A stretch of DNA of 64,000 bases, from assembly GCF_032854445.1 (NCBI RefSeq), contig NC_088298.1, forward strand, positions 16,759,976 through 16,823,975, given 5' to 3'. Source of the DNA: Liolophura sinensis (lineage: Eukaryota; Mollusca; Polyplacophora; Chitonida; Chitonidae). How positions within the stretch are numbered: the first letter of the stretch is position 1; each line of letters begins with the position of its first letter. The notes beneath the pieces were generated by a model. That model had not been told where the DNA came from, ran no database searches, and worked only from the letters and a program-made list of their open reading frames with translations. Shown here piece after piece: positions 29,101-35,100 of the stretch. The position numbers and the translations under genes are program-made.

Positions 29101-32100
29101 TTGTTTAAAATGTTAAGCAACATTTGTTAACATTAATTTACCAATCCCTTATCTTACCGTGCTCTTGGGGCACAACTGACACTTCTTTCCTTTAGAAACT
29201 TCTCAAGCTCACAAACTTTCTCCATCGATTCATCAGTTTTCTTCGTAAGTCGTCTGGTTTAAAATACCTTTTTTGTGAACCTTTTGTAGACGCCCATGCT
29301 ATGGTCAAAATGTGATAAATATTAACTGCTTAACGTTTTGACAGTTCATATGATACAATAGAACTTCTTTTAATCCCAAAATCCCTATCTACTACGCAAT
29401 ATTTACCACTCTTTTTATCATCTGATTCACTTTTAAAGAACATTAATTTTCCAAATTTCTATCAGATGTTATCTATTTTTGGACATTCGGTTAAGTGTTA
29501 CACTGTGAGCATTTCTCATGTGGTTTGTAAACATGTCGCACACCTTCGACATACTTTGTGCATTGTACTTGCAGTAATTACGTTTTGAAGAGAAGTAGTG
29601 GTTTGGAAGAGCCCGGTGAACTGGTGTGGAGACTGACTCTGTGTTTACTGCTCGCCTGGATCATTGTCTTCGCTGTGTTGTTTAAAGGAATCAAGTCACT
29701 TGGAAAGGTACGAATCTCTGTAGCTATTAGTTTACTATTCATCTGGATCGTTGTCTTCGCTGTGTTCCTTAAAGGGATCAAGTCACTTGTAGAGATACGA
29801 ATCTCTGTAGCTATTTGATTACTATTCATCTGGATCGTTGTCTTTGCTGTGTTCCTTAAAGGGATCAAGTCACTTGTAAAGATACGAATCTCTGTAGCTA
29901 TTTGATTACTATTCATCTGGATCGTTTTCTTCGCTGTGTTCCTTAAAGGGATCAAGTCACTTGTAAAGGTATGAATCTCTGTAGCTATTTTATTACTATT
30001 CATCTGGATCGTTTTCTTCGCTGTGTTCCTTAAAGGGATCAAGTCACTTGTAAAGGTACGAATCTCTGTAGCTATTTGATTACTATTCATCTGGATCGTT
30101 GTCTTCGCTGTATTCCGTAAAGGGATCAAGTCACTTGTAAAGATACGATTCTCTGTAGCTATTTGATTACTATTCGTCTGGATCGTTCTCTTCGCTGTGT
30201 TCCTTAAAGGGATCAAGTCACTTGTAAAGGCACGAATCTCTGTAGCTATCTGATTACTATTCATCTGGATCGTTCTCTTCGCTGTGTTCCTTAAAGGGAT
30301 CAAGTCACTTGTAAAGGCAAGAATCTCTGTAGCTATTTGATTACTATTCATCTGGATCGTTGTCTTCGCTGTGTTCCTTAAAGGGATCAAGTCACTTGTA
30401 AAGGTACGAAGCTCTGTAGCTATTTGATTACTATTCATCTGGATCGTTCTCTTCGCTGTGTTCCTTAAAGGATCAAGTCACTTGTAAAGATACGATTCTC
30501 TGTAGCTATTTTGATTACTATTCGTCTGGATCGTTCTCTTCGCTGTGTTCTTTAAAGGGATCAAGTCACTTGTAAAGGCACGAATCTCTGTAGCTATCTG
30601 ATTACTATTCATCTGGATCGTTGTCTTCGCTGTGTTCCTTAAAGGGATCAAGTCACTTGTAAAGGCACGAATCTCTGTAGCTATTAGTTTACTATTCATC
30701 TGGATCGTTGTCTTTGCTGTGTTCCTTAAAGGGATCAAGTCACTTATAGAGATACGAATCTCTGTAGCTATTTGATTACTATTCATCTGGATCGTTGTCT
30801 TTGCTGTGTTCCTTAAAGGGATCAAGTCACTTGTAAAGATACGAATCTCTGTAGCTATTTGATTACTATTCATCTGGATCGTTTTCTTCGCTGTGTTCCT
30901 TAAAGGGATCAAGTCACTTGTAAAGATACGATTCTCTGTAGCTATTTGATTACTATTCGTCTGGATCGTTCTCTTCGCTGTGTTCCTTAAAGGGATCAAG
31001 TCACTTGTAAAGGCACGAATCTCTGTAGCTATCTGATTACTATTCATCTGGATCGTTCTCTTCGCTGTGTTCCTTAAAGGGATCAAGTCACTTGTAAAGG
31101 CACGAATCTCTGTAGCTATTAGTTTACTATTCATCTGGATCGTTGTCTTTGCTGTGTTCCTTAAAGGGATCAAGTCACTTGTAGAGATACGAATCTCTGT
31201 AGCTATTAGTTTACTATTCATCTGGATCGTTGTCTTTGCTGTGTTCCTTAAAGGGATCAAGTCACTTGTAAAGATACGAATCTCTGTAGCTATTTGATTA
31301 CTATTCATCTGGATCGTTTTCTTCGCTGTGTTCCTTAAAGGGATCAAGTCACTTGTAAAGGTATGCATCTCTGTAGCTATTTGATTACTATTCATCTGGA
31401 TCGTTTTCTTCGCTGTGTTCCTTAAAGGGATCAAGTCACTTGTAAAGGTACGAATCTCTGTAGCTATTTGATTACTATTCATCTGGATCGTTGTCTTCAC
31501 TGTATTCCGTAAAGGGATCAAGTCACTTGTAAAGATACGATTCTCTGTAGCTATTTGATTACTATTCGTCTGGATCGTTCTCTTCGCTGTGTTCCTTAAA
31601 GGGATCAAGTCACTTGTAAAGGCACGAATCTCTGTAGCTATCTGATTACTATTCATCTGGATCGTTCTCTTCGCTGTGTTCCTTAAAGGGATCAAGTCAC
31701 TTGTAAAGGCAAGAATCTCTGTAGCTATTTGATTACTATTCATCTGGATCGTTGTCTTCGCTGTGTTCCTTAAAGGGATCAAGTTCACTTGTAAAGGTAC
31801 GAATCTCTGTAGCTATTTGATTACTATTCATCTGGATCGTTGTTTTCGCTGTGTTCCTTAAAGGGATCAAGTCACTTGTAAAGATACGATTCTCTGTAGC
31901 TATTTGATTACTATTCGTCTGGATCGTTCTCTTCGCTGTGTTCCTTAAAGGGATCAAGTCACTTGTAAAGGCAAGAATCTCTGTAGCTATCTGATTACTA
32001 TTCATCTGGATCGTTCTCTTCGCTGTGTTCCTTAAAGGGATCAAGTCACTTGTAAAGGCACGAATCTCTGTAGCTATTTGATTACTATTCATCTGGATCG

Positions 32101-35100
32101 TTGTCTTCGCTGTGTTCCTTAAAGGGATCAAGTCACTTGTAAAGGTACGAATCTCTGTAGCTATTTGATTACTATTCATCTGGATCGTTGTCTTCGCTGT
32201 GTTCCTTAAAGGGATCAAGTCACTTGTAAAGGTACGAATCTCTGTAGCTATCTGATTACTATTCATCTGGATCGTTGTCTTCGCTGTGTCCCTAACAGGA
32301 ATCAAGTTACTTAGAAATGTACGTATTTGTATCCCTGTGTGTACAGATTACCTGGATTATGGTGTTCTCTTTATTCTTTAAGGCATCAGTTTATTTGGAA
32401 ATGAACCAGTCTGTATTTGGATTACAGTCTTCGCTATATTCTTTATGAGGTTCAGTCATTTGGAAAGTACTGATCTTTGTCTCTGCCGGGGCCTCCGTGG
32501 CTCAGTTGGCTAGCGCGCTAGCACAGCGTAATGACCCAGGAGTCTCTCACCAATGCGGTCGCTGTGAGTTCAAGTCCAGCTCATGCTGGCTTCCTCTCCT
32601 GTCGTAAGTGGGAAGGTCTCTCAGCAACCTACGGATGGTCGTGGGTTTCCCCCGGGCTCTGCCCGGTTTCCTCCCACCATAATGCTGGTCGCCGTCGTAT
32701 AAGTGAAATATTCTTGAGTACGGCGTAAAACACCAATCAAATAATAATCTCTGTGTTCACAAATTACCCGGATTATTGTCTTTGAGGTGATGTTTAAGGG
32801 ATTCAGTCACTTGGGAGTCCATCTGTAACTATGGGACCTCTACCGATAGCAAAAGGTTGGCATTGCTGGCATAAGGTATATTGAATAATTGATAATCATA
32901 ATGTATAAGTGCAAATGGAATCACAAAAAAAAACAAGAGTGAAAAAGGCATACTTTTGATCCCACCACATTTAACAGTAGGGCAAAAGGGCTTTGGGAAC
33001 AGATTGTGTAGAAGGGATGTAGGGATATGTAAAGTATCGAAGTGCGAATAAATATGATAAATTTGAATCCCGTCTATCTATAAATAAAGATAATATTCTC
33101 TGTCCTTCCATCTGCCCCATAATGACACAGGTGATCGTTTTTCACACTTACTGGGCTAAGTGCACTGATGAAGACTCAAGAAAATGCAGTGTCGAGTAAA
33201 GAAAAATTGGGTACGCAAGTTTACATGGCATTTACTGTATGTAAAACAGTTTATCACACATATTTTCTGACTATAACGGAAGGGATCTCTGCATAAATTG
33301 CTTGCGTAAAGTACGCAAGCGTGGCGTCATAAATCTTTTCAACGGGCACTGCACTGACTTATGCTTTGGCAAAACACTGACAGCCCTATTGGCTGTATCA
33401 ACTTTCTACATGTATACTGTCTTTATATGCTGTGTCTGTCGTCAATTGTGTGTACATGTAATTCAGATGCTGCCCAACTAAATTATATGCAGTGTGTAGA
33501 CTTCTGCATTGCAGTTGAATTAAATTACGGCTCGGAGAGACGCAAGGAGTCTCTTTCATAAATGGCACGTGCATGTATCTAAGACAGTTTTTTTCGACAT
33601 GAAAATTTGTAGAGATACTCTTTAATGCAAACGTTAGAGTTTCATCAGCAATAAATACCAAGTAATTAAAAAAATCATTCCGGCATTTGAGACATTTGAA
33701 AAATCGAATGTTCACTGACATAATTTCTAATTTTATTTTTCCAATGAATACTAAAGAAAAGTCGAACGATAATTTGCCTAGGGAACCAACACTCTATAGC
33801 GGTTTCCAAATTAACCCATTGACTCTAAAATGTAATTGAAGAAACCACAAAGTGACAATTTGGGAAAATTAATTACCATAACAAATGCCGAGAGTTTCTT
33901 TTTATTTCCTCAAGGTATAGTTTCTAGGAAAGATTTGGTTGTCCGTCACAATACGTTGTAGAAATATGATTGGGCTGTCAATGTCGTAACACGCAAATAC
34001 TCCAGGTGATTTGTGACGATGATACATGCAGACAGCCCTAACAAAATTGTGGTCAACAAAATAAAGCGCTTAAGTGAATTTCCCTCTCCATTGTCGTTAT
34101 AAAATACGGGAAAGTCGAGTGGCTGCAAATCTCATTCTTTCCATTGAACTAAACGATGTTTAATGTCAAATTTAAACGTTTAATATTGCTGATATTATAT
34201 GTATGGACAGCCGATTAACAGTAAGTCAGTGAGTTTCAGCCCAGATGTACGACAACGTCTGTTACATGTAATATGCAATGTTCCCGACGGAGTATCGGTA
34301 TACACAAAACAGCTGCATGAGGGGTTCTTTTTGCTGAAATATACATAGTGGAATGTAATAAAGAGAGTTTACAGGGTTTTGTGAAAGAATCCGAGAGAAC
34401 CCCTTCACAGGTGCCATAGATTAGAAATTAAAATTAGACATACAGATATGTGAAAAAATGAAATTACTTTTTTTGGATAAACAATGTTTTGAATGATTTA
34501 ATATGCCAATATTTCTGGATAGCTTTTTAGTGTCCAGTAGACCATTGATGGGACTGCGTCAGTTTAAAAGTTTGTCAAGATATACACTATACAAGTTTAC
34601 CATAAATGGTGAATTTGATACCATCGTATTATATATTAACAAGTTATGTTATTATCAGCAAATATTGATTCATCAAGCATTTCCGAGGGAAAATAAAAAG
34701 GAGACAAGTTAGAAATTTTAAAATACTTCCGTAAACCGTAGAAGTTTTCAGAGAATGGGGAAAGAATTTATTAATGTAATCGATATGTATGACAAGAAAC
34801 TATAATGAGAGAAATCGTTAACATGTGCGCTACTTGATTTTGTTTGAACAACAGCTACTATATTGTGTCCGTATCCTCGACCATCTGTGTGTTCTAATAG
34901 TCAATAATTCTACACCAGTGACGTCTAATAAATTGCAATTCACATCACTGCATTTTTGTACCTAATTTTGCTCAGGCAAATTTTGCTAAGGGTCGTGTAA
35001 ATTGTTACTGTTTATGTATTTAAATGCATAGTTAGAATAAAACCTTGACTGCATGAGGTAACTGGCAAGAGGTCGTATTTCATCGGTTACGTATGACCAT

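What the first reader, a model, noticed from the sequence alone, without database searches (positions are those of the whole stretch)
29640..32310. A splice junction turned into a satellite: 29 tandem copies of an exon end plus its 5' splice site
The 87-bp unit is built from the last ~60 nt of the SLC6 TM4 exon, the donor and the first ~21 nt of the intron. The true junction is followed by 29 recognisable copies of itself. Minisatellites are common in introns, but one seeded by a coding exon's 3' edge and expanded beside the live splice site is unusual. Spliceosomes meet an array of decoy donors in the same pre-mRNA, and use of an early decoy would add an extra hydrophobic segment after TM4 (or a stop, as most units have TGA in frame). 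The sequence relation is direct; an effect on splicing is inference.
Basis: partly seen in the sequence, partly recalled or inferred. Interest (0 to 1): 0.88.

Follow-up and report, generated by a model that had tools for sequence, protein, structure and literature searches.

The report
Splice-site minisatellite in a mollusc transporter gene
The end of one coding exon and the splice signal behind it have been copied in tandem about thirty times inside the next intron of a mollusc transporter gene; this is real, but it is a known kind of repeat ("mirage") and several sister genes of the same animal carry their own.

Summary
An 87-bp unit (63 nt of the TM4 exon end plus 24 nt of intron) follows the true junction (29707/29708) in 29 near-identical copies, then about four decayed ones to ~32.83 kb. 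Genome searches found it nowhere else. A tandem sister gene has the same exon without the array; at 8 of 9 exon/unit differences the two exons agree against the unit, so the exon is the source. Of 29 copied donors 8 keep GT, 10 read GC, 11 AT; an in-frame TGA (29816) precedes the first GT or GC copy, so no such decoy can add a clean hydrophobic segment. "Unusual" fails locally: about ten other SLC6 splice junctions read here carry copies of themselves (one array: 32 units, 30 with GT), and junctions are copied no more often than intron positions (12/197 v 160/1500). The kind is in print: amphioxus "mirages"; human F7 intron 7, where normally only the first donor is used. The genome looks molluscan (eight tandem haemocyanin domains). 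Best reading: a neutral mirage beside a live donor. Excess donor decay is clear in this array only, so selection against decoys is a weak lead. No RNA was available.

The parts
29575..29707 (+). SLC6 (glycine-transporter-like) exon encoding TM4; its last 63 nt seeded the unit
   Evidence: Frame, acceptor and donor read; the joined exons match GlyT2 chain 9w8q best, E 4.5e-136; same exon in the sister gene, L019:4889-4999, 35 of 37 residues
29708..29713 (+). true 5' splice site AAG|GTACGA
   Evidence: Scores 11.4 bits, the median of 26 paralog donors at the same intron; two paralogs use the same hexamer (L056, L066)
29708..32231 (+). 29 units of 87 bp (24 nt intron + 63 nt exon-like), each ended by a copied donor; blocks 16 units apart are alike
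   Evidence: offset-16 identity 98.0% over 13 pairs; other offsets up to 19 give 93.4-95.4%
29816..29818 (+). first in-frame stop (TGA) after the junction
29969..32233 (+). the eight copied donors that keep GT start at 29969, 30056, 30404, 31361, 31448, 31797, 32145, 32232
32256..32487 (+). decayed copies T1-T3
32488..32745 (+). tRNA-like SINE between decayed copies T3 and T4 (ends approximate)
   Evidence: further copies of its 22-nt head, up to 4 mismatches, at 18138, 35798, 36171, 36995; that it is a SINE is recalled, not tested
32749..32814 (+). decayed copy T4
36580..36714 (+). next SLC6 exon ([13 protein letters not shown]...), acceptor at 36579/36580

Best explanation
It is a junction-spanning minisatellite ('mirage'). 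A tandem duplication across the exon/intron edge of this SLC6 gene, after it split from its sister gene, was amplified and homogenised by unequal exchange of unit blocks up to the exon edge; the exon itself is held by selection. The spliceosome keeps using the first, exon-proximal donor, so the array leaves with the intron; it has no required function. Shown: source, local origin, block structure, intact exon and donor. Inferred: unequal exchange, use of the first donor, neutrality.
For: Exon A differs from the unit consensus at 9 of 63 sites; at 8 the sister exon B agrees with A, at 1 all three differ, at none is A the odd one; A differs from B at 12 and B from the unit at 20, so the unit stems from A after the split. 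Exons A and B give the same 21 residues; the unit changes six. The sister intron has no array. Units 16 apart are most alike; the far edge is decayed and carries a SINE-like insert. Tandem arrays fill 21.5 kb of 234 kb of the loci read, and 160 of 1500 intron positions have a nearby direct copy against 12 of 197 splice edges: junction arrays need no special cause. Mirages and the F7 repeats are reported to splice normally (passages).
Against: The donor pair is the most variable pair of the unit (rank 1 of 87, 1 of 86); +1 and +2 rank 2nd and 3rd of 87 columns. No RNA shows which donor is used. An array-overlap test hints at more junction arrays than chance (9 v 4.4, P 0.025).
Confidence: 0.78

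Rival explanations
1. Selection has silenced the decoys: units whose copied donor had turned to AT or GC spread because live decoys cost transcripts.
For: 21 of 29 copied donors are not GT; +1 and +2 are never changed together; the chance that two named columns are both in the top three is 0.0008 if columns are exchangeable; the donor also decays in the three-unit array L057 (2 of 2 copies, rank 8 of 82).
Against: Other arrays keep live sites (true site counted where matched): L056 GT in 30 of 32, L053 4 of 4, L054 16 of 18, L050 acceptor AG 11 of 12, L028 9 of 10; the seven arrays combined give P 0.25. The whole donor stretch -3 to +6 ranks only 4 of 87. Units share history, so columns are not independent. 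L056 shows that 29 live copies are tolerated.
Confidence: 0.12
2. The array regulates the gene: some copied donors are used, giving stop-bearing transcripts that are degraded, so array length tunes output.
For: Eight GT copies score 10.1-11.4 bits, like paralog donors; every one lies behind the TGA at 29816.
Against: No RNA; no array in the sister gene; published mirages and F7 keep the true site.
Confidence: 0.06
3. Splice junctions are preferred seeds of minisatellites in this genome.
For: 9 of 54 arrays overlap an exon by 8-60 nt against 4.4 expected, P 0.025. One of the nine, L063, does not copy the junction when read; the window's own array was outside the count (70 nt overlap).
Against: The direct test goes the other way: 12 of 197 splice edges against 160 of 1500 intron positions, odds ratio 0.54, P 0.045; without the window 11 of 187, P 0.040.
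Confidence: 0.04

Closest known systems
Mirages of amphioxus (Adh3, globins BflGb6 and BflGb9, TnC; imperfect ones in PGBD5)
   Same: Minisatellite-like tandem duplication of an exon-intron boundary; either edge can be hit; many copies keep AG/GT; units homogenise inside the cluster and not at its boundary (PMC3087553, passages; PMC3902484, one passage)
   Different: A mollusc, not a lancelet; about 30 units here and in L056 against 6 and 3 units in the two BflGb6 haplotypes; 87-bp unit; splicing and length variation not tested here
Human F7 intron 7 37-bp repeats
   Same: The true donor lies in the first of a row of highly homologous repeats (PMC6627357, passage)
   Different: 37-bp unit against 87; there the use of only the first donor in the normal state is reported, here it is inferred; most copied donors here are AT or GC
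Internal tandem repeats at exon-intron boundaries in human segmental duplicates
   Same: Minisatellites that alter gene structure at exon edges (PMC2812944, Results and Discussion read)
   Different: There on average 30-bp units repeated 4 times, with transcript support; here longer, in an old intron, without transcript data
Intron gain by tandem duplication (potato RdRp)
   Same: Tandem duplication crossing an intron-exon boundary (PMC4974935, abstract)
   Different: There a new intron arose; here an old intron grew, at a position that most SLC6 paralogs read share

Membership tests
Mirage (junction-spanning minisatellite) | Tandem units hold both exonic and intronic sequence of one exon-intron boundary | tested here: met
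   63 nt exon + 24 nt intron per unit; exon A, sister exon B and unit compared
Mirage (junction-spanning minisatellite) | Local to the gene, not a dispersed repeat | tested here: met
   Only this place found in the genome (best candidates only are scored)
Mirage (junction-spanning minisatellite) | Homogenised inside, decayed at the cluster edge | tested here: met
   Units 93-98% alike, edge copies 58-81% to exon or unit
Mirage (junction-spanning minisatellite) | Normal splicing of the gene is kept | not testable with these tools
   No RNA; exon, true donor and next acceptor are intact
Mirage (junction-spanning minisatellite) | Copy number differs between haplotypes | not testable with these tools
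   One haplotype held
F7 intron 7 type | Copied donors near-identical to the first | tested here: not met
   8 of 29 keep GT; L056 of the same genome does better, GT in 30 of 32
SLC6 gene (host gene) | Sodium neurotransmitter symporter family sequence | tested here: met
   Four PF00209 rows fall in the window's gene; GlyT2 9w8q E 4.5e-136 for the joined exons
Mollusc genome | Mollusc-type haemocyanin (row of eight functional units) | tested here: met
   Eight PF14830 matches, C8:37880506-37891931. The 14 control genomes (0 matches) are bacteria and archaea as far as named, so they do not test other animals; that the domain marks molluscs is recalled

The most novel reading that the evidence does not exclude
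In this mollusc several percent of the splice junctions of one gene family sit in self-copied arrays, at both donors and acceptors; in this array the copied donors were switched off by selection, while in others dozens of live copies are ignored: a natural series that measures how much a decoy splice site costs by distance, strength and side.
Probability: 0.15. Interest if true: 0.66.

Novelty: new member of a known kind. Interest (0 to 1): 0.42.

Why it matters
The kind is known, but the sources I read place it in lancelets and human genes; here it occurs repeatedly in what looks like a mollusc, with up to about 30 units. Rows of identical donors (L056) or acceptors (L050) beside the true site are ready-made natural tests of how the spliceosome chooses among equal sites, and of how exon edges survive beside expanding repeats.

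Tried and rejected
Rejected: dispersed repeat. Exon derived from the array rather than the reverse (no site at which exon A is the odd one). Array shared with the sister gene. In-frame extra TM segment by GT or GC decoy use. General seeding of arrays at junctions: searches (9 v 4.4, P 0.025; 12/197 v 160/1500, the reverse) disagree; I hold it unproven. One search left out locus L052, which overlaps L027. In one search only 93 donor and 104 acceptor edges of 137 exons were usable; the window's own array donor and L054's array donor are not among its hits, so the edge-finding step missed them; I judge three of the twelve hits weak (L054 acceptor, L021 acceptor, window 38488), and L053 is weak by E-value but clear when read; controls left out positions near exons and, in the window, those near the array and outside 25-41 kb. 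General purge of decoys: seven arrays combined P 0.25.

Led nowhere: PF00083 as an independent gene family (11 places, no sequence). Borensztajn et al. 2006 and Canestro et al. 2002 are not held; I know them only through a citing passage or reference list. Decayed copies T1-T4 show no consistent kinship to exon or unit (like exon 3/6/3/5, like unit 8/3/5/3). A literature search on the SINE gave nothing of use (6 of 111 listed).

Full report
What is there. The window lies on contig C4 of a 609-Mb genome. Between 29656 and 32323 runs an array of period 87, 30.7 copies, 94% matches. Cut at the donor, it is the true junction (29707/29708) and 29 copies; 11 copied donors read AT, 10 GC and 8 GT. 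Decayed copies follow to about 32.83 kb, split by a SINE-like insertion at about 32488-32745 (the class is recalled).

The gene. The exons of the window are SLC6 (PF00209, four rows). Joined by hand they match glycine transporter 2 best (9w8q, E 4.5e-136); GlyT1 and an entry called 'Transporter' follow closely. The exon ends ...KGIKSLGK and the next begins [13 protein letters not shown] at 36580. Most SLC6 paralogs read have the intron at the same place. A sister gene 52 kb away on the same contig has the same exon (35 of 37 residues), donor GTAAGT and no array.

Where the unit comes from. Over the 63 exon-derived sites exon A differs from the unit consensus at 9, from exon B at 12, and B from the unit at 20. 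At 8 of the 9 A/unit differences A and B agree, at one all three differ. Exon A is thus the source, after the A/B split. Both exons code the same 21 residues; the unit changes six of them. Searches with the exon edge and with two consensus units found no other place (15 matches; 23 matches; all at this locus; the tool scores its best candidates only).

How it grew. Units 16 apart are 98.0% identical over 13 pairs; the other offsets up to 19 give 93.4-95.4%. Four of those 13 pairs are identical. This points to block duplication. A homogeneous middle and a decayed far end are what unequal exchange leaves; that mechanism is inference.

What the copied donors could do. A weight matrix from 26 paralog donors gives 11.4 bits to the true donor (their median), 10.1-11.4 to GT copies, 6.3-8.8 to GC copies and 1.7-5.1 to AT copies. 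The exon frame meets TGA at 29816; only the AT copy at 29795 lies before it. Use of any GT or GC copy would give a stop, not an added membrane segment. 24 of 29 units hold TGA at that codon.

Are the copies silenced? The donor pair is the most variable pair of the unit (rank 1 of 87), and +1 and +2 rank 2nd and 3rd of 87 columns; the whole stretch -3 to +6 ranks 4 of 87. But other arrays of the same genome keep their sites: L056 30 of 32, L053 4 of 4, L054 16 of 18, L050 11 of 12 (acceptor), L028 9 of 10 (acceptor); L057 has 1 of 3 (copies found by a fuzzy motif). The seven arrays combined give P 0.25. There is no general purge; for this array alone it remains possible.

It is not alone. Read by eye, junction-copying repeats stand at donors of L053 (63 bp, 4 units), L054 (37 bp), L056 (38 bp, 32 units) and L057 (83 bp), at acceptors of L050 (72 bp), L028 (44 bp), L026 (53 bp) and L065 (55 bp), and as a single duplication at the donor of L060. 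L049 has two further copies of a donor by alignment only. L063, L021 and L051 have arrays next to an exon that do not copy the junction. Arrays cover 21.5 of 234 kb in 28 loci with 137 exons found by alignment; 60 of 637 random 87-nt probes repeat nearby at the level of L053. Splice edges have copies in 12 of 197 cases, intron positions in 160 of 1500 (odds ratio 0.54, P 0.045); an array-overlap test gave the opposite sign (9 against 4.4, P 0.025). Junctions are thus hit about as often as array density predicts, within a factor of two either way. All this is one gene family, chosen by kinship to the window's gene.

Known kind. 'Mirages' are minisatellite-like tandem duplications of exon-intron boundaries in amphioxus; RT-PCR there suggests that splicing is not disturbed although many copies keep AG/GT (PMC3087553, passages; PMC3902484, one passage). 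In human F7 the first of a row of 37-bp repeats holds the donor and normally only that one is used (PMC6627357, passage). Human segmental duplicates have minisatellites at exon edges (PMC2812944, Results and Discussion). The present genome has eight tandem haemocyanin beta-sandwich domains and so looks molluscan (the taxonomic meaning of the domain is recalled). In my searches I saw no listing that reports mirages in a mollusc; these lists show titles and abstract starts, and searches list 20 of 26, 9 of 10 and 10 of 38 papers.

Verdict. It is a mirage in a mollusc, one of about eleven junctions with self-copies among the SLC6 loci read. Use of the first donor and lack of function are inferred.

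Noticed in passing
L056:3469-4686: 38-bp array of 32 units that copies an SLC6 exon end with a strong donor (GTAAGT); GT kept in 30 of 32. A cleaner case of decoy donors than the window's.
   Followed up: partly
L050:1549-2333: 72-74-bp array that copies an acceptor with its pyrimidine tract and the exon start; AG kept in 11 of 12.
   Followed up: partly
L028:199-611 and 884-2204 (gene on - strand): 44-bp acceptor-copying array; the exon edge has 38 matches in 2.5 kb upstream, so the neighbouring 43-bp array may be of the same origin.
   Followed up: partly
L060:5165-5540 (- strand): Single duplication of most of the TM4 exon with its donor in another SLC6 paralog, as the first step of such an array might look.
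   Followed up: no
window 48066-49301: 59-bp array, 20.9 copies, 97% matches, downstream of the SLC6 exons found.
   Followed up: no
window 18138, 32488, 35798, 36171, 36995: Five heads of one tRNA-like SINE on the + strand, three of them in the intron that holds the array and one in the next (class recalled).
   Followed up: no
G000:C8:37880506-37891931: Row of eight haemocyanin beta-sandwich domains: looks like a mollusc-type haemocyanin gene.
   Followed up: no
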